From IMG/VR virus record IMGVR_UViG_3300045996_002979, positions 1-23,974 of that record: 23,974 bases of DNA; one strand, written 5' to 3'. Source of the DNA: a virus. Every line of letters begins with the position of its first letter. Within the stretch, counting starts at the first letter, position 1. Under the pieces are notes generated by a model. That model was not told the DNA's origin. It saw only the letters and a list, made by a program, of their open reading frames with translations, and made no database searches. The position numbers and the translations under genes are program-made. This document shows, in pieces, positions 1 through 12,546 of the stretch.

Positions 1-1583
1 GTGCCAGTCGCCGACTTGGCGATCGTAAGGTTGCTGCCCGAGATCGAGATCGTGATCTGGTAGACCGTGTTGGCAACGAAGTTAAAAGCGTTGGACCCGC
101 TGGGGGACACGGTCACGGCGCCGCCCGCGCCGTCGAAGCGGGAGAGCACGATAACATTGGTCGAAGCGGCGTCGTTTTGCGCCTGGCCGTTGAACTGCAC
201 GCGAAACCCGGCAGCCGCATTGTTGCTCATGATGGCGGTGCCCAGACCGCCCCATTCAGCCGCTGTCCACCCGTTTGGATCCTGCCCCGGCGTCGCCTTG
301 CCGAGATAGGCCAGGAACATCTTGCTTTGGACGATGCTGGCGCCGGTCGCGGTAATTGCGTCCAGCCACTCGTAAAGAAAGGTAAAGCTCCAGGTATTCG
401 TAGACGGGCGATTCTTTGCCCACATCATCACGTCGGCGCCCGGATCGGTGATATCCGGGCCAGCGCGCAGGATGACGGCGTTCGTCTCCTGAACAACGTT
501 GGCGGAAAGCGGTGCTGCCTGCTGCACCGTCCAGCCCGCCTCAACGTCCGGCCCGAAAGCCGGGAATACCGGGGGCGGGGGTGGTGGGGGTGGCGGCACC
601 GGCGGGGGTGGCGCTGGCGGGGGCGGCGCCGGCGGAGGCGGCACGGGCGGCGGCGGAGGAGGAGGTGGCGGGGGCGCCGACGCCGTGTTGTCGCGAAGCT
701 GCTGAACCGACCAGTTATTGCCACGCCAGCGGATCGGCGTGCCGCTGGCGGCATACCATAGGTTGTATCCCTCGGAGACTTGAGCTGAATCTCGGGTGCC
801 GACAATCAGCCCAACGAACGTTCCAGTAGAATAGCTGATGTTGTTGCGTATCTGAATGTTCTGGACACCGACGTCGCCATGGCCGTTGATCGAAATCGGG
901 CTGTTGTAGAACGTGTTATGGTATATACGAATGTTGGTGGCACGATCTGCCAGAATTATGCCGGGGTAGGATGCGCTACCGGTCTGCCCTACATTTGTGT
1001 TGAATACATTGCTGTATATGTCAAAATTGCTTCCGCTTTGATCGTGGTAAAAGTGAATTGCCGCGCCTGGAACGGACCCGAAATAGTTCCTACGGATGAT
1101 GACATTCGACGCATTGCCGGCGCCGGGGTAGATGTGGTGGTCGAGGTCATCGAGGCCGTTTTCATCAAAAACACACTGCTCGATGATAAAGTGGTGGCCG
1201 CCATCGAGCGAGATGGCGCCGTTGCCCCACTCGTCGCCCCAGTTCTCGATGCCAATACGGACTATGTTGACGTACTGATGACCTTCCTGGAAGGTGATAA
1301 AGTAGCCCTGCCTGGCGTCAGGGTCGGAAGCATTTTTGTTGCCATCAAAGATGGCGAACTCGCCCGGATAGGACGTAAATGTTATTGGCGCTACGGATGT
1401 GCCGCTGACCGTCCAGTCGACCCATTCTCCGGCATTGAAGTACCGACCGCCTCTGGCGTACAGTGTATCGCCGGGCTTGAGGAAAGCTTGCGCCCGTTTG
1501 TACGTAGCGAACGGCGAAGCCAGCGTGCCCGGATTGCTGTCAGAACCGCCAGCACTTCGGAGGGCCATATAGTAGGAGGCCAT
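1..1583 (-). CDS. Right-handed beta-helix tail appendage protein with proline-rich joint (partial, runs off left edge)
   Basis: The frame stays open from an ATG at 1583 to the window edge, about 527 codons. Residues 1-300 look like a right-handed beta-helix of the pectate-lyase/choice-of-anchor Q kind: an opening with GGSDSNPGTLASPF and KPGDTLYARGG, then short beta-rungs rich in N, I and G (FIIEQCVFDENGL, IRIYHNTFYNSPI). Residues 304-338 form a proline tract (P10-V-P4-A-P4-A-P4-V-P9). After it comes a beta-rich domain with aromatic residues (TWSFTFLYEWLDAI, KMFLAYLGKA), possibly a concanavalin-like fold, cut by the window edge. The expected beta-helix C-terminal cap (DPLFV, DFHLQAGSPAI, GAFE) is missing here but present at the end of the upstream gene. 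The start follows a weak ribosome site. It lies in the same frame as the upstream gene, separated only by one TGA. Role inferred: a host-polysaccharide binding or cleaving tail appendage. No catalytic residues could be assigned. Confidence 0.85.
   Translation of the reverse strand, partial: MASYYMALRSAGGSDSNPGTLASPFATYKRAQAFLKPGDTLYARGGRYFNAGEWVDWTVSGTSVAPITFTSYPGEFAIFDGNKNASDPDARQGYFITFQEGHQYVNIVRIGIENWGDEWGNGAISLDGGHHFIIEQCVFDENGLDDLDHHIYPGAGNASNVIIRRNYFGSVPGAAIHFYHDQSGSNFDIYSNVFNTNVGQTGSASYPGIILADRATNIRIYHNTFYNSPISINGHGDVGVQNIQIRNNISYSTGTFVGLIVGTRDSAQVSEGYNLWYAASGTPIRWRGNNWSVQQLRDNTASAPPPPPPPPPPVPPPPAPPPPAPPPPVPPPPPPPPPVFPAFGPDVEAGWTVQQAAPLSANVVQETNAVILRAGPDITDPGADVMMWAKNRPSTNTWSFTFLYEWLDAITATGASIVQSKMFLAYLGKATPGQDPNGWTAAEWGGLGTAIMSNNAAAGFRVQFNGQAQNDAASTNVIVLSRFDGAGGAVTVSPSGSNAFNFVANTVYQITISISGSNLTIAKSATG
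570..674 (-). repeat. Proline-coding tract (35 codons, P4-A/V units)
   Basis: On the minus strand this stretch encodes ten prolines, then V, P4, A, P4, A, P4, V and nine prolines. It joins the beta-helix body to an unrelated C-terminal domain. The codons vary (CCA, CCC, CCG, CCT), so it is kept as protein sequence as well as being a low-complexity DNA repeat. Its organisation matches the tract at 1788-1886. Confidence 0.95.
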
Positions 1584-1598
1584 GCTATAGATCCGTGC

Positions 1599-3290
1599 TC
1601 ACGGCTTTTCGAAGGCTCCCATATCCGAGGCTGGTCCTTGCGGTCGCAGCACGCCGTCGAAGTCGACGGGCACTGCCCATGCGCCGTGGGCCGCGTTGAT
1701 CGCCGGCGAGCCCGCTTGCAGATGAAAATCGGTTGAGGAAACGAAGAGCGGATCGGCCTGAATCGAGCCAATGCCCTGACCGCCCACCGGTGGTGGCGGG
1801 GGTGGTGCGGGCGGGGGCGGCGCCGGGGGCGGCGGTGCGGGCGGTGGCGGTGCGGGCGGCGGAGGAGGAGGTGGGGGCGGAGGTGGCGCTACGCCGGCAA
1901 TGACAACGCTTACTGCGGCTTCCGCGCTGCGGTCTTGGCTGGAAACGCGAACCAAGAATGCGTCTGCGCCAGAAGCAGATACATTGGCCTGATAGAATAG
2001 GCTGCTGCCGTCAACAGTAGCTACGCCCTGCTGCGGCAGGGTGCTAAGGCTGGGGACTAGCGGCGTCCCATCCGGGTCGGCGCCGCCGCTCAAGATGTCT
2101 ACGTTGATTGTGCCGCCGGGCGCGCAGGTTGTCCAGACAGGCGCAACCACAGGCGACCGATCGGCAATCGCGGCACTCTCGGTATTGCTCAGCCCGTAAG
2201 CCGATCGCGGGTTTGCTTGGCTCCGATAGAGGTGTCGGATCGCAGCCCCGCTAAGGGCGCGCCGGCAGACGAAGATTCGGCCAAAACTCCCGGCGATGCC
2301 GGCGCCATCGACGTTGGCGCCAAGGCGCAGGCCATGCCCGACGCTGACGGCCAGGGAACCGGTGGGCGGCGTGCCGGTGAGCAGGGTCGGAAGAAGCTCA
2401 CCGTCTTTATACAGCTCGGGCTCATCGCCAAGGCCGGGACGGCCAACGAAGGCGATGAACTGCGGGGTGTTAAGCCCAACCGAGCCGGACGGACCCCAGG
2501 CCGTCACCGTCTGGCCGCCGACGGTATGGCTGACCGCCCACATGTTCACGCGACCGGAGGCCGCGGAAGATGTAGCGGCGTGGAAAACCGAGAGGCGCCC
2601 GGTGCCAGCTGTTGTGCCGCCGACGCGGATCCAGGAGCCCGTGGCGGCGATGCTCGTTGGCCTGAGCCAGCCGGCTATCGTCCACTCCGCAGCCCCGTCC
2701 AGCCACGTCGCATCGGCAATCTCGCCGTGCCCGGTCGTGGCCAGCGCCGCCGTCGGCATGCCCAGGATGGTGACGCCGGTCGTCGCGCCGACCATCGTCA
2801 TATTGCGGCCGGCCCCCGAGACATCGGTGCCGGTCGGCATTTTCAGGACAGCGTGATAATCGCTCCAGACCCCTGCCGGATCGCTCTCGGAAGCGACCAA
2901 CCCCGCTTTGCCGAGGTAGGCGAACAGATCAGTATTCGAGCGGGGATCGAGGGACGGAAGTTTCAGGTAGCCGGCGGCGCGGCCTGCCACCGGGTCGTAC
3001 GTCTCGAGTTCATGGGACCTTTTGGCGCCCGTAGACGACTCGACCCGAAAGTCGAAGCCAAGATCGCTCGCAATCAGGCCGCCTTGCGCGACGCTGCGAA
3101 GATCGGCATGAACCTCGTCAAAACGAACAATAAGGTTGGTTTCCGGATCGAGGCCGCCCAGCGTCGCGCCCGCCATCCGTTGAGGCACGCGGTATACGTA
3201 CCCGTTCGGGTAGGTGACCGGTCCCGGCGGAGGCGGCGGCGGAGGCGCCACGCCAGAGCCGCCCGCCGTTGGAAACAGGTGGAAGAACAT
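1599..3290 (-). CDS. DUF2341/LamG-type modular tail appendage protein with orphan beta-helix cap
   Basis: 563 residues. After a short N-terminus comes a seven-proline joint (residues 16-22). A DUF2341-like domain follows at about 26-150, with the typical HADLRSVAQGGLIASD and HELETYDP motifs. A LamG/concanavalin-like domain lies at about 185-360 (EWTIAGWLRPTSI, LYKDGELLPTLL, GRIFVCRRALSGAAI). An Ig/cadherin-like domain lies at about 375-467, then a 33-residue proline tract at 469-501. The last 62 residues match the C-terminal cap of choice-of-anchor Q beta-helix proteins (DPLFVSSTDFHLQAGSPAI, GAFE), yet no beta-helix precedes it. The family assignments are by recognition of motifs, not search. 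Probable role: carbohydrate binding on the tail. The gene follows a fibre gene by 14 bp, and no strong ribosome site precedes the ATG, so a start slightly upstream or coupling to the fibre gene is possible. Confidence 0.85.
   Translation of the reverse strand: MFFHLFPTAGGSGVAPPPPPPPGPVTYPNGYVYRVPQRMAGATLGGLDPETNLIVRFDEVHADLRSVAQGGLIASDLGFDFRVESSTGAKRSHELETYDPVAGRAAGYLKLPSLDPRSNTDLFAYLGKAGLVASESDPAGVWSDYHAVLKMPTGTDVSGAGRNMTMVGATTGVTILGMPTAALATTGHGEIADATWLDGAAEWTIAGWLRPTSIAATGSWIRVGGTTAGTGRLSVFHAATSSAASGRVNMWAVSHTVGGQTVTAWGPSGSVGLNTPQFIAFVGRPGLGDEPELYKDGELLPTLLTGTPPTGSLAVSVGHGLRLGANVDGAGIAGSFGRIFVCRRALSGAAIRHLYRSQANPRSAYGLSNTESAAIADRSPVVAPVWTTCAPGGTINVDILSGGADPDGTPLVPSLSTLPQQGVATVDGSSLFYQANVSASGADAFLVRVSSQDRSAEAAVSVVIAGVAPPPPPPPPPPPAPPPPAPPPPAPPPPAPPPPPPVGGQGIGSIQADPLFVSSTDFHLQAGSPAINAAHGAWAVPVDFDGVLRPQGPASDMGAFEKP
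1788..1886 (-). repeat. Proline-coding tract (33 codons, P4-A units)
   Basis: The minus strand encodes P11-A-P4-A-P4-A-P4-A-P6, preceded by GVA and followed by VGG. It joins an Ig-like domain to an orphan beta-helix cap. It is the counterpart of the tract at 570-674, in the same reading frame and of the same P4-A unit type. Confidence 0.95.
3225..3245 (-). repeat. Short proline-coding joint (7 codons)
   Basis: Encodes seven prolines after GSGVA near the N-terminus of the DUF2341/LamG protein. The VA-P(n) entry motif is the same as at 1886 and 9138, which suggests one recurring joint sequence. Confidence 0.85.
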
Positions 3291-8166: not shown

Positions 8167-9228
8167 TCAGGACGCGCTGTGCGACTTGAGAATCGTCATC
8201 TGCGGCTTGATCGTGCCAGCAAGAGTAGGCACCGGCTCGATGTTGTACATATAATCAACACCAGTGGTGCTATTGTACCACCAGGGGCCGCCTGCCCAGT
8301 ATATGGGGCTTATCCAGACATCCCGGTTCGCATCCATGTAATCGAGTATGGCCTCTCCCTCGACATTGCCTTCTGGGCTGGCCCAGCCGACCTCGCCAAG
8401 GATTGCTCGCCGACCCAAGGCCCGACACCAGTTGGTAAAGTTTACCAGCCGCGTGCTACCGGCCCCGGCAGTGGCTGTTCGCGAAGTGCCCGAGCTGTCC
8501 GGGTCAAGATACTGATGGACCTCATAGCAGAAGTTGCCGACGCTATCGACCACTTCACCCATGACTGCAGCGTTGTTATTCAACCAGCTATGCGCGCCAG
8601 TCCAATCCGTACCCGGAACAACTATGAGATGATCAGCGCCTTCAGCCCGGATAGCCGCGATTGCAGCGTTGGCCGCGACCAGCCAGTCCGCGGCCGAGAT
8701 GCCGTCAGGCTGCGTGACCGCCTTTGGCTCGTTGATCAACCCGTAGATAACATTGAGATTGGACTTCGTGGCCGCAGCCAGGTCAGTCCAGTACTCGACA
8801 AACTGCGTCCTTGCCGTGCTGTTGCTTACCGGCACTCCATCTATCTTGCCGTACTCATGTGGATCCAGCAGGCTGTAGCAGCCCTTGCTGGTGATGTAAT
8901 TCGCCAGAGACACCAGCGTGGCAATGCCGGTTGGCAGTATTCTGTGGAACAGGAATGGAATGCGGAATATCTTTATGCCCTGGCCGACATAATAGTCGAC
9001 TTCGGCATTGGTTGGCCAAGTGTAATGCGTTCCAAGAACGTCCCCAACACCGTCGCCAAACTCGGCGCCGGCCAAGTTGACGCCCAACATCCAGGGGGCG
9101 CTACTCGCTTGTAGCAAGACCGGGGGCGGGGGTGGGGGTGCGACCGCCCCACGCTGATACCCCTGAAGCCCCAGCAGCTTCAGGTAAGGTCTCCCATCAG
9201 CACCCAGGTGTCCGTTGCCACCTTCCAC
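8167..9228 (-). CDS. Endo-beta-1,4-glucanase (glycoside hydrolase family 5), virion-associated type
   Basis: 353 residues counted from a GTG at 9228. Residues 31-36 are a proline joint, and the enzyme domain fills about 45-345. Family 5 signatures are clear: LGVNLAGAEFG, YTWPT, IFRIPFLFHR (Arg89), SLLDPHEYG (His124), YGLINEP with Glu167 as acid/base, YEVHQYLDPDSSGT (His238), ILGEVGW with Glu279 as nucleophile, and a late WAGGPWW. This pattern fits subfamily 5, whose members hydrolyse cellulose and related beta-1,4-glucans. Both catalytic glutamates are present, so activity is likely. There is no signal peptide. With the proline joint and its place among fibre genes, this points to a tail-borne enzyme rather than a secreted one. 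The start is uncertain: the frame overlaps the upstream fibre gene by 49 bp and lies in its -1 frame. Substrate inferred: exopolysaccharide cellulose of the host or its biofilm. Confidence 0.93.
   Translation of the reverse strand: MEGGNGHLGADGRPYLKLLGLQGYQRGAVAPPPPPPVLLQASSAPWMLGVNLAGAEFGDGVGDVLGTHYTWPTNAEVDYYVGQGIKIFRIPFLFHRILPTGIATLVSLANYITSKGCYSLLDPHEYGKIDGVPVSNSTARTQFVEYWTDLAAATKSNLNVIYGLINEPKAVTQPDGISAADWLVAANAAIAAIRAEGADHLIVVPGTDWTGAHSWLNNNAAVMGEVVDSVGNFCYEVHQYLDPDSSGTSRTATAGAGSTRLVNFTNWCRALGRRAILGEVGWASPEGNVEGEAILDYMDANRDVWISPIYWAGGPWWYNSTTGVDYMYNIEPVPTLAGTIKPQMTILKSHSAS
9121..9138 (-). repeat. Short proline-coding joint (6 codons)
   Basis: Encodes six prolines after GAVA at the N-terminus of the GH5 enzyme. 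It has the same VA-P(n) entry as the joints at 3245 and 1886. Confidence 0.85.
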
Positions 9229-9707
9229 AGGGTGGCGCCGGAATACTGAACTCGGATCGACAGGGCACGATCGGACGCCTTCTGGATCGTGACGCCTGTT
9301 CCCGCTGCTATGACAAAAGCGCCGGTCCCGTAGCGGACCAGGTTGATCGTCTGATTCACAGGAAAGGCAACGGTGCCGTTGGGCGGCACGGTGCCGGTCA
9401 CGCTGGATGCGGAGTTCGAGCGGGTGATTTTGGAAGTCGAGGCGTCGGCAAGCGCAAACGTGAAATTGGCCGTTTTGTCGTTCGGCGCGGCCTGGGTAAC
9501 CACATCCTGAACGAAAGCCGTGGTGGCGACCGAGGTATCGTCATCGGTAAAGCTCGGCGTCGGCGCCGTTGGGTTGCCAGTGAAGGTCGGCGAGGCGAGC
9601 GGCGCCTTGGCGTTTACCTCGAGCTCGATATTGTCAAAATTCGTGTCGTGCTGCGCTGTGCTCAGCGGCGCGCCGTTTGGCACGCGCTTGGATAGGGCCA
9701 GAACCAT
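9180..9707 (-). CDS. Tail fibre protein, paralogue of 10652-11299
   Basis: 175 residues. The N-terminus LSKRVPNGAPLSTAQHDTNF is followed by the fibre repeat ASPTFTG and a TSVATTAFVQDVV motif typical of phage side-tail fibres. The last 98 residues (from KTANFTFALADAS to TWVLMGDLT) are a beta-rich cap that matches the other paralogue at 72 of 98 positions by direct comparison. The start has a strong ribosome site, GGAGG, inside the end of the preceding gene. The stop lies inside the open frame of the GH5 gene. Role: fibre subunit, probably carrying or neighbouring the enzyme on the tail. Confidence 0.88.
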   Translation of the reverse strand: MVLALSKRVPNGAPLSTAQHDTNFDNIELEVNAKAPLASPTFTGNPTAPTPSFTDDDTSVATTAFVQDVVTQAAPNDKTANFTFALADASTSKITRSNSASSVTGTVPPNGTVAFPVNQTINLVRYGTGAFVIAAGTGVTIQKASDRALSIRVQYSGATLWKVATDTWVLMGDLT

Positions 9708-9963: not shown

Positions 9964-10655
9964 TACCAAAGCTCCAGGATGTGACCGGCCCAGTGGTCAA
10001 AGGCGGTCGCAGAGGTGACGGTGGGGCCGTCCGTGGCGCCAGCTGTCCCGCCGACCTTGGTGAACAGCGCCGCCGAAGCGTCGGACCCGGGATTCGGACC
10101 GTTGTCGCTCTCGCCGAGCTTCGTCCAACCCGTAGCGGAATACGGGTCGCAAGCCCCGCTGATCGCGCCGCCAATGGCCAGGAGCCGCCGACCGGTTCCG
10201 GCCAGCGTCTTCGTGGGCGAAATCGATGTCGTCCCGGCGGTTGTCGATCGAACCGGCGTTCCGGCAGAAACGCCACCCGTCCAGGAGACCAGGTCGGTCA
10301 CGAAGAGAATAATGTTGCCGAGCGAGGAAGCGGAACCATCGACGACCACATCCTGCGCTGAGCCTGTCGGAACGCCTGAGGCGGTCCCGCCCCAGACCCA
10401 GGATTGACCATTCGCCGAGCCGAAGGCTGAGCCCTGGGCGGTTATTGTCACGCCGCCCACGGTGACGGCGTCCATAGCCGGCGGGGTGGCCTGCACACGC
10501 CCGATCATCAGGACCGCAACGCTCCCGGTCGTGCTTGTGTGCGCAGCGCTCCAGGTTTCGGCCGTGATGAACGTGGAGACGGTGAGAGTGGTGACAGTCC
10601 CAATCGTTACGGCCACCGTGGACGTCCGGCCGCCGAATAACCCCATCGGGATCAC
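9963..10655 (-). CDS. Beta-sandwich tail appendage protein, unknown family
   Basis: 230 residues from a GTG that overlaps the preceding stop as GTGA; an ATG three codons on (10646) is an equal alternative. The product is rich in T, S, G, V and A and almost free of charged residues, with long alternating strands (VTIGTVTTLTVSTFI, GSVAVLMIGRVQATPP, AVTVGGVTITAQGSAF), and ends HWAGHILELW. This is the composition of jelly-roll or carbohydrate-binding domains on phage appendages. No catalytic motif is visible. It sits between the first fibre and the small helical gene and mirrors the position of the GH5 enzyme behind the second fibre, so it may be the matching appendage tip. Confidence 0.75.
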   Translation of the reverse strand: MIPMGLFGGRTSTVAVTIGTVTTLTVSTFITAETWSAAHTSTTGSVAVLMIGRVQATPPAMDAVTVGGVTITAQGSAFGSANGQSWVWGGTASGVPTGSAQDVVVDGSASSLGNIILFVTDLVSWTGGVSAGTPVRSTTAGTTSISPTKTLAGTGRRLLAIGGAISGACDPYSATGWTKLGESDNGPNPGSDASAALFTKVGGTAGATDGPTVTSATAFDHWAGHILELW

Positions 10656-11299
10656 GTCAAATCACCGAGCAAGACCCAAGTGTCGGTGGCTTGTTTCCAA
10701 AGTGTGCCGCCGGAGTGCTGGGCACGGAGAGACAAGGACCGGTCGGACGGCTTGTTAATCGTCACCCCCGCACCGGCCGCAATGACGAAGGCGCCGGCGC
10801 CCGATCGATACAGATCAAGGCGCTGGCCAATTGGAAAGGCGACACTGCTGTTTGGCGGCACAGTGCCGGTGACAGAGCTGGCCGAGTTCGACCGGGTGAG
10901 CTTCGGCGTCGCCCCATCGGCGAGAGCGAAAGTGAAGTCGACCGTCTTGGCGTTGTCAGCCTGCTGGGTGACCGAATCGTTGACCGCGGCCATGGTCGCG
11001 ATCTGCGTCGTGTCGGTGCCGAGCGCTGCGCTGGGGGCGGCAGGCGTCCCGGTCAGGGTCGGGCTGGCAATCGGGGCCTTCAGATCAAGAGCGGTCTGCT
11101 GGGCGGTAGAAACCGGCTTTGCTGTGTCGGCCGTGTTATCTACACTGCCCAGGCCGACCATTGATTTGGTGATGCCCGAAACAGTGCCGGTAAAGGTAGG
11201 CGATGCGAGTGGCGCCCGGAGCGTGATCTCGTCTACGTTTCCGTCGTGCTCGGCGGCGGTAAGGGCTGAGCCCTTGACGAGCCTCTTGGTCAGCGTCAT
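10652..11299 (-). CDS. Tail fibre protein, paralogue of 9180-9707
   Basis: 215 residues. N-terminal LTKRLVKGSALTAAEHDGNV is followed by two fibre repeats (LASPTFTGTVSG and IASPTLTGTPAAPS) separated by the stretch LGSVDNTADTAKPVSTAQQ, which is common in lambda-type side-tail fibres. The 98-residue C-terminal cap (KTVDFTFALADGA to TWVLLGDLT) is shared with the second fibre gene, whose shaft lacks one repeat. The start overlaps the upstream stop as ATGA, and the stop overlaps the next start as GTGA, so translation is coupled on both sides. Role: fibre subunit in host recognition. Confidence 0.88.
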   Translation of the reverse strand: MTLTKRLVKGSALTAAEHDGNVDEITLRAPLASPTFTGTVSGITKSMVGLGSVDNTADTAKPVSTAQQTALDLKAPIASPTLTGTPAAPSAALGTDTTQIATMAAVNDSVTQQADNAKTVDFTFALADGATPKLTRSNSASSVTGTVPPNSSVAFPIGQRLDLYRSGAGAFVIAAGAGVTINKPSDRSLSLRAQHSGGTLWKQATDTWVLLGDLT

Positions 11300-12546
11300 T
11301 CGAAAATTCCCGCCTCGAACACACCCGCCTCGAAGACGGTTCCGATTACTGCCGAGCCCTCATAGACGCCGGAGGCATAGACCTCGGTCGCATAGACGCC
11401 GGTCCCTGCGGGCGGCTCTTCGACAGGGGCCTGGCCCTCGCGCCAGTAGGTGATTTCCTTCAGCCACACGCTCTGTGTCGCTGGAGGAACTCCGTCGCCC
11501 CACTGGTCGCTGAACATCGCGCCGCGAACGCCGTAGGTACCGTCGAGCGAGTAGACTGCGTCGCGCTCTTCGGCCCAGAGCGTGCCGTTGATCCACACGC
11601 GGGCGATGCCGTCTGCCACGCCCGGCGTGTTCATTTTGACCTCGTAGTCGAGATGAACCCACTGCCCGCGCGGCCAGACACCGGTATTGGGGCCGATGTT
11701 CCGGCCCTCCATATCGCCGTCCGGAAGACGGGGCTCCCGGCGATTGAACGAGTAGCTGTAGAGACGGCAGCGAGCGTCAAACTGATCCGGACTCGTGGCG
11801 GTACCATTCGACCACGAATTGCGTATGCTGACGCCCTGCTGAAGCTCAGGCGGGGTGCCGCCAGTGCTCAGGTCGCGGTCGCCGATAATGAGCCCAACGC
11901 CCAGCTTTCCGCCCGTCAGCGCGGTCGACGGGTTGCCCCAGTCGAAGGTGGACGCCCACCAAACCCGGCAGGACAAGCCCACAGCATGAAGACCGGGGCT
12001 GCCGAATGTGTTCAGAGTGAAGTTGACATCCTGCGTCGCGACGCCGGACGTATACGTGTACCGCAGGCAGAGAGGGGACCCATCAGGAGCGCTGGCAATG
12101 GAGGCGCGGTTTTGCGTGTCCAGGAACTCTGCATCATGCAGGGAAGGGTACCGGGCCGGCGTGATGACGTTCTTTGCAAGAAGCCCACTGTCAGAGGTGG
12201 TGAGATCACTGAGCACCGGCGTGCCGTACCATCCCGTGCGCGCGCGCGGGGGCAGGGGGGCCGGAAGAATCGGACCAGCCACTCCGGTAGACCGCACGGC
12301 GAGCTGGCTGTCGAAATACTCGTCATTGCCTGCCGCCACCGCGCCGAGGGCTTCAGGGATACTGTAAAAATTCGTGCCGGAGAAACCTCCGGTGGCCAGC
12401 GTGAGGCTGACGGCATCGACTTCCAGCAGATAGACGAGACTGGCGCTCTGCTTCTCCAGTTCGACCAGCCATCGGGGCGACGGCGCCAGTGTGTGGGCCG
12501 CTACCCCGGCTAGGCCGGTATCGAGCGTGCCGGCGAGACCTTGCAC
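11296..12546 (-). CDS. Polysaccharide-lyase-like tail protein with GLAG N-terminus and pentapeptide-like tail
   Basis: 416 residues from a GTG that overlaps the tape measure stop as TAGTG. The N-terminus MQGLAGTLDTGLAGVAAH resembles that of the tail-tip protein at 6414. From about residue 115 to 375 the fold looks like the concanavalin-like polysaccharide lyases (families 14/20): PLCLRYTYTSGV, GKLGVGLIIGDRD, then GVWPRGQWVHLDYEVKMNTP, DGIARVWINGTLWAEE, and a final WLKEITYWREG strand. The catalytic residues of those families could not be fixed by eye, so binding without cleavage is possible. The last 34 residues form five-residue units of the type GVYAT and VFEAG. It is the first gene after the tape measure, where lambda has tail-tip genes. 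Role inferred: tail-tip polysaccharide recognition or depolymerisation. Confidence 0.8.
   Translation of the reverse strand: MQGLAGTLDTGLAGVAAHTLAPSPRWLVELEKQSASLVYLLEVDAVSLTLATGGFSGTNFYSIPEALGAVAAGNDEYFDSQLAVRSTGVAGPILPAPLPPRARTGWYGTPVLSDLTTSDSGLLAKNVITPARYPSLHDAEFLDTQNRASIASAPDGSPLCLRYTYTSGVATQDVNFTLNTFGSPGLHAVGLSCRVWWASTFDWGNPSTALTGGKLGVGLIIGDRDLSTGGTPPELQQGVSIRNSWSNGTATSPDQFDARCRLYSYSFNRREPRLPDGDMEGRNIGPNTGVWPRGQWVHLDYEVKMNTPGVADGIARVWINGTLWAEERDAVYSLDGTYGVRGAMFSDQWGDGVPPATQSVWLKEITYWREGQAPVEEPPAGTGVYATEVYASGVYEGSAVIGTVFEAGVFEAGIFE
11299..11400 (-). repeat. Five-residue tandem repeat at protein C-terminus
   Basis: The last 34 residues of the lyase-like protein divide into seven units: GVYAT, EVYAS, GVYEG, SAVIG, TVFEA, GVFEA, GIFE. 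Each has a hydrophobic/aromatic pair at positions 2-3. The pattern suggests a small stacked-strand structure, akin to but not matching the classical pentapeptide consensus. Confidence 0.7.

What the first reader, a model, noticed from the sequence alone, without database searches (positions are those of the whole stretch)
570..1886. A beta-helix protein appears split from its own cap at a proline joint, as if one gene circle had integrated into another
The upstream gene reads [DUF2341-LamG-Ig]-Pro tract-[beta-helix cap]-stop; the downstream gene reads start-[beta-helix body]-Pro tract-[other domain]. The cap begins GQGIGSIQADPLFV, exactly what should follow the body's end (GNNWSVQQLRDN). One crossover at the proline tract, of a circle carrying body-Pro-cap into a gene carrying LamG-Pro-other domain, gives this order. 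Both tracts are in the same frame, so recombination between them would leave an in-frame fusion. The tracts could thus be swap points for appendage domains.
Basis: partly seen in the sequence, partly recalled or inferred. Interest (0 to 1): 0.8.

Follow-up and report, generated by a model that had tools for sequence, protein, structure and literature searches.

The report
Phage adhesin split from its cap
Two neighbouring tail genes of an uncultured phage together hold exactly one beta-helix protein, cut cleanly at the joint between helix and end-cap and put together in the wrong order, with the cap at the end of the first gene and the helix at the start of the second, which suggests an adhesin made of two chains or a frozen rearrangement.

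Summary
Gene A (3290..1599, minus) ends in a proline tract plus a choice-of-anchor-Q cap (NF041518). Gene B (1583..<3) starts with a right-handed beta-helix body, then a proline tract, then another domain. A profile from 11 intact relatives gives body 15.0 bits, cap 52.8 and body+cap joined 78.0, as one match; every deletion or insertion tried at the joint lowers the score. In all 12 records where both ends were found, body precedes cap in one frame; only the window has the reverse order, without an intact unit. None of 7 genuine caps sampled in viral contigs follows a proline tract. Tandem body-cap arrays, with cap-stop-4 nt-start-body beside a LamG gene, do occur in a viral contig (L040); a unit read out of register from such an array gives this layout. 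I favour that origin, and infer (not shown) that A's cap docks on B's body in trans. Limits: one metagenomic contig, B truncated, no relatives of A or B, no reads.

The parts
1599..3290 (-). Gene A: N-terminal leader with short Pro7 run, DUF2341-like, lectin-like region, Big_9 Ig domain, proline tract, cap, TGA stop
   Evidence: ORF; Big_9 E 2e-6; DUF2341 E 0.21; choice_anch_Q E 1.7e-11
1905..2153 (-). Bacterial Ig domain (Big_9, residues 380-462 of A)
1788..1886 (-). Proline tract A, 33 residues, P11-(APPPP)3-AP6
1602..1781 (-). Cap: choice-of-anchor Q end domain GQGIGSIQADPLFV...GAFEKP (60 aa)
   Evidence: NF041518 44.2 bits; own-profile match to model 107-162; 49-52% identity to caps of L010 and L016
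1584..1601 (-). TGA stop plus 15-nt spacer (five sense codons ARIYS in the same frame), then ATG of gene B
   Evidence: sequence
3..1583 (-). Gene B: beta-helix body, proline tract, other domain; truncated by the contig end
   Evidence: ORF open at the edge; the record is the whole contig
684..1583 (-). Beta-helix body, residues 1-300, ending ...IRWRGNNWSVQQLRDNT
   Evidence: Beta_helix and Pel9A-like, PelN E 7e-10, start-of-body profile 55 bits
570..674 (-). Proline tract B, 35 residues, P10-VPPPP-(APPPP)2-VP9
3..569 (-). Other domain of gene B (incomplete); no reliable family match
   Evidence: no relatives in phages, no PDB match, only a weak Asparaginase_2 hit

Best explanation
Genes A and B are neighbouring appendage (adhesin or polysaccharide-active) genes of a siphovirus-like tail. 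Together they hold exactly one beta-helix plus choice-of-anchor-Q cap unit, in permuted order. Shown: the two parts are complementary at the body/cap joint, with nothing visibly lost or duplicated, and each cut end is next to a proline tract. Inferred: the source was a tandem array of body-cap genes, as seen in a viral contig and in bacteria. The stretch from the middle of one copy to the middle of the next (cap-stop-start-body) was taken up into a Pro-linked appendage gene, much as swaposins arose from the saposin array. Inferred: because relatives always carry the cap on the end of the helix, and B has no N-terminal anchor of its own, the cap on the flexible proline arm of A probably docks on the open end of B's helix. 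That would hold B on A as a two-chain adhesin made from adjacent, closely spaced genes.
For: Joined body+cap behaves as one family member: 78.0 bits against 15.0 and 52.8 apart, best at the exact joint. Seamless match to an intact viral protein and to Massilia and Spirosoma proteins across the joint. Order body then cap in all 12 records with both ends. No Pro run of 4 or more in any of the 41 pattern-matched frames, 7 of them genuine distinct caps. Arrays: L040 body-cap-body-cap-stop-4 nt-start-body-cap, followed by a LamG gene (PF13385, E 2e-12); L011 two tandem genes; L008 and L009 repeated units in one frame. Permutation from tandem copies is an established route (PMC3320104). Fibres in which one protein holds another, and separate proteins that sit on the end of a beta-helix, are known: DT57C LtfA/LtfB (PMC4728585), T4 gp5-gp5.4 (PMC7600766), S16 gp37-gp38 (PMC6851490).
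Against: Only one contig shows it; no relative of genes A or B was found, so conservation, and hence function, is untested. The trans docking rests on inference alone: AlphaFold of the read-through cap-body chain was uninformative (pLDDT 40), and complexes could not be predicted. The array origin needs the unit's two outer ends to become joined to proline tracts, by events not traced. Nothing shows that A or B is in the virion.
Confidence: 0.45

Rival explanations
1. Circle integration, the reader's model: a circular molecule carrying body-Pro-cap recombined once, at its proline tract, with a LamG-Pro-other gene, giving LamG-Pro-cap / body-Pro-other.
For: Gives the single clean cut and two full-length, similarly built tracts in one frame. 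Removing the 1212 nt between tracts would leave an in-frame fusion. Deletions by recombination between identical sequences in two adjacent fibre genes are known: phage DT530(1) (PMC4728585).
Against: No body-Pro-cap protein found; relatives have no proline tract at the joint. Tract similarity beyond codon use is marginal (p 0.03-0.05). A 1.2-kb gene circle is an extra assumption.
Confidence: 0.2
2. Unlinked module shuffling: A picked up a free-standing cap as one of many Pro-linked end domains, while B separately lost its cap to another Pro-linked domain; the match of the two cut ends reflects only the natural domain border.
For: Pro runs precede domains elsewhere in the module (GH5 gene, N-terminus of A). 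The domain border is the likeliest place for any cut.
Against: Needs two independent events that leave cap and body 18 nt apart (stop included) and exactly complementary. No Pro-linked cap was found in 41 pattern matches, 7 of them genuine distinct caps.
Confidence: 0.17
3. Assembly effect: the record joins pieces wrongly at the GC-rich proline repeats, or collapses a longer array such as LamG-Pro-cap, body-Pro-cap, body-Pro-other.
For: Metagenomic contig, no reads; both joints fall in low-complexity tracts, and the contig ends about 570 nt past the second.
Against: The longest word shared by the two tracts is only 20 nt, too short to mislead assemblers with longer k-mers. The cap-stop-body joint lies in unique sequence and would be real in any case. 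Third tracts outside the contig cannot be excluded.
Confidence: 0.13
4. Relic: the rearrangement broke a former adhesin, and cap and body are now non-functional remains awaiting loss.
For: Body without cap and cap without body are each incomplete relative to the relatives.
Against: Both frames are open over their whole length, and GC3 of the parts (0.66-0.79) lies near that of other phage genes. B retains a start codon next to A's stop.
Confidence: 0.05

Closest known systems
Right-handed beta-helix proteins with a C-terminal choice-of-anchor Q / DUF5123-like end (e.g. L010, L016, Massilia WP_193689246.1, podophage MW202608)
   Same: Same type of body start, last turn and cap motif (IxADPLFV...DFHLQAGSPA...GA[FY]E)
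   Different: They carry body and cap directly joined in one protein; here the two are on separate chains in reverse order and next to proline tracts
Permutation by duplication (saposin to swaposin; PMC3320104)
   Same: A permuted unit taken out of register from a tandem array
   Different: Here stop and start lie inside the permuted unit, so it is split over two chains; a parental array was seen only in other records
Two-protein lateral fibres LtfA/LtfB of T5-like phage DT57C (PMC4728585)
   Same: Adjacent appendage genes, one proposed to attach the other; in-register fusion by recombination between identical sequences is recorded (DT530(1))
   Different: Attachment there is inferred through regions related to phiEco32 gp14/gp15, not a cap taken from the partner's own fold
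Separate tip proteins on phage beta-helices: T4 gp5.4 on gp5 (PMC7600766), S16 gp38 on gp37 (PMC6851490)
   Same: A separate polypeptide attaches to the end of a beta-helix
   Different: Those are trimeric helices with dedicated tip proteins; here the cap is the family's own intramolecular end moved to another gene, and binding is untested

Membership tests
choice-of-anchor Q domain (NF041518) | Score above the curated cut-off (25 bits) | tested here: met
   44.2 bits for gene A, residues 521-561; 47.5 bits
Body-cap beta-helix protein (one chain) | Cap directly follows a beta-helix in the same protein | tested here: not met
   The cap is preceded by a proline tract and an Ig domain; the helix is in the next gene
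Right-handed beta-helix (PF13229 / pectate-lyase-like) | Family score of the body | tested here: inconclusive
   24.5 bits against cut-off 25.9; Pel9A-like 22.7 against 25.2; start-of-body profile 55 bits
Right-handed beta-helix (PF13229 / pectate-lyase-like) | Beta-helix fold | tested here: inconclusive
   The window's own chain gave a poor model. The L016 relative gave a moderate all-beta model (pLDDT 54.5) with weak matches to polygalacturonases and phage tailspikes
Body-cap unit (both genes joined) | Body end and cap start continuous, about 28-29 residues from the Trp to the ADPLF motif | tested here: met
   Only after joining the two genes: 28 residues against 29 in the L010 and L011 relatives, counted on the alignment; best score at the seamless joint
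Permutation by duplication | Tandem body-cap precursor exists in nature | tested here: met
   L040, L011, L008, L009, none in a close relative of this phage
Permutation by duplication | Precursor in the same lineage | not testable with these tools
   No relatives of genes A or B found
Two-protein branched fibre (LtfA/LtfB-like) | Second protein attached to the virion through the first | not testable with these tools
   Needs complex prediction or experiment
Proline-tract recombination site | Tracts share DNA ancestry beyond codon use | tested here: inconclusive
   79% in register, p 0.05; longest word 20 nt, p 0.03

The most novel reading that the evidence does not exclude
A permuted, split beta-helix in which one adhesin gene carries the missing end-cap of the next on a flexible proline arm, so that cap complementation in trans is itself the coupling that holds the second adhesin on the virion; domains beyond the proline tracts could then be exchanged without disturbing the joint.
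Probability: 0.27. Interest if true: 0.75.

Novelty: new variant of a known kind. Interest (0 to 1): 0.5.

Why it matters
If the cap docks in trans, it is a simple natural way to link two phage adhesins: a fold cut in two whose halves find each other. That would be a model for how split genes keep a working structure and how tail modules are exchanged. If it does not dock, the locus is still a clear snapshot of how beta-helix genes are cut and rejoined next to proline linkers in phage appendage evolution.

Tried and rejected
Single-protein scans of viral contigs for A, the body, and tail genes g6414 and g5225 found no relatives; two genome-contig scans found none. A capsid relative (L002, 94%) is only 9.4 kb and does not reach the tail-fibre genes. 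An alignment of 7 ends was too varied to scan with. AlphaFold of the TGA read-through cap-body chain gave pLDDT 40, so no conclusion was drawn. Base composition was tried to see whether cap and body share an origin: GC3 cap 0.68, body 0.66, LamG part 0.74, other 0.79; the direction fits, but with 60 codons it is too weak to use. TGA read-through into one protein was considered: the frame is open, but no known read-through context was identified, and one chance in three gives the same frame. The podophage MW202608 stretch 'TASAP' resembles B's 'TASAP' but is judged chance.

Full report
What is there. The window is a complete IMG/VR record of 23,974 bases, a fragment of an uncultured tailed phage; the structural genes I examined lie on the minus strand. 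Gene A (3290..1599) ends with a bacterial Ig domain (Big_9, E 2e-6), a 33-residue proline tract, and a 60-residue end domain that NCBIfam names choice-of-anchor Q (44.2 bits, cut-off 25). Gene B (1583..<3) begins after a TGA stop and a 15-nt spacer. It has a 300-residue beta-helix body, a 35-residue proline tract, and a further domain cut off by the contig end. The DUF2341 part is only weakly supported (E 0.21), and no Pfam LamG model fired.

Does the cap belong to the body? The end of B's body and the start of A's cap were joined in a query and searched. The joined end matched proteins in which both sides are continuous: Massilia and Spirosoma plasmid proteins, a bacterial-looking record filed as a phage (MT837514), and a viral contig at 41% identity over 79 residues with no real gap. 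A DNA pattern for the cap motif gave 41 viral stretches. Seven of these, after removing duplicates, are genuine caps (the motif is followed by the SPA/SPC part), each directly after beta-helix sequence, none after a proline run. A profile built from 11 intact relatives, without the window, scored the body 15.0 bits (model 7-93) and the cap 52.8 bits (model 107-162). Joined they score 77.5-78.0 as one match over 7-162. Deleting 3 to 25 residues, inserting 5 to 30, or leaving the proline tract in place all scored lower; 200 scrambles of the last 40 body residues never reached the real score, although the best came within 0.6 bits. So the two genes hold the two complementary parts of one unit, with nothing visibly missing or doubled.

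Is the order unusual? Profiles for the start of the body and for the body-cap end were run over all frames of the window and every fetched locus. In all 12 distinct records where both were found, the body comes first and the cap follows in the same frame; in the window the cap comes first, in another gene, and no intact unit is present. This is a permuted and split unit. Eleven of the sequences behind the profiles come from these same records, so the profile scores there are not independent; the order is.

How could it arise? The layout fits. But no body-Pro-cap protein was found, and the two tracts are only slightly more alike than shuffling synonymous codons gives (79% in register, p 0.05; longest shared word 20 nt, p 0.03). 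Tandem body-cap units, by contrast, are easy to find: one frame with repeated units in Runella and Spirosoma plasmids (L008, L009), two head-to-tail genes 52 nt apart in L011, and in the viral contig L040 the sequence body-cap-body-cap-stop-4 nt-start-body-cap, followed by a LamG gene (PF13385, E 2e-12). Taking the stretch from one joint to the next out of such an array gives cap-stop-start-body directly. This is the swaposin route of permutation by duplication (PMC3320104). I rank it above the circle, but the data do not decide: both explain a single clean cut.

How might it work? This part is inference. Relatives carry the cap at the end of the helix, and B has no N-terminal extension before its body that could anchor it. 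A's cap on a long proline arm could dock on B's helix end, so that A holds B. Precedents for the two separate elements exist: LtfA/LtfB of DT57C, where the second fibre protein is thought to be attached through the first and where a deletion by recombination between identical sequences fused the two genes in register (PMC4728585); and separate tip proteins that sit on beta-helices, T4 gp5.4 and S16 gp38 (PMC7600766; PMC6851490). Structure prediction could not test it: the read-through chain gave pLDDT 40. The model of an intact relative (L016) had moderate confidence for the helix, with weak matches to polygalacturonases and phage tailspikes, and low confidence for the cap.

Limits. There is one contig, no reads, no close relatives of A or B, and B is truncated. 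A joining error between these two tracts is unlikely (20-nt shared word), but a third tract elsewhere in the genome cannot be ruled out.

Noticed in passing
window 8167-9228 (-): GH5 cellulase-like gene (PF00150, E 4e-36) inside the tail module, with a Pro6 run after a 30-residue leader.
   Followed up: partly
window 11296-12546 (-): Polysaccharide-lyase-14-like gene next to the tape measure (PF21294, E 9e-10); the module seems rich in glycan-active parts.
   Followed up: no
window 9180-9707 and 10652-11299 (-): Two paralogous fibre-like genes, 50% identical over 215 aligned positions, with APLASPTFTG-type repeats.
   Followed up: partly
window 8132 and 12546 (-), first ~30 codons: Genes g6414 and the PL14-like gene share a similar N-terminal leader (GLAGxxDxGLAG), perhaps a common attachment signal; the match is weak (E 0.45).
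   Followed up: partly
window 1584-1601 (-): Genes A and B are separated by one TGA and five sense codons in the same frame; read-through would give one chain of both.
   Followed up: partly
L040 1-3113: Viral contig with tandem beta-helix/cap units, stop and start only 4 nt apart, next to a LamG gene.
   Followed up: partly
L011 (MT837514.1): Record filed as 'Bacteriophage sp.' looks like bacterial chromosomal DNA (lipoprotein-like starts, IPT/NHL-like proteins).
   Followed up: no
L002 (IMGVR_UViG_3300045996_003458): A related phage fragment with a capsid protein 94% identical to the window's, 9.4 kb only.
   Followed up: no
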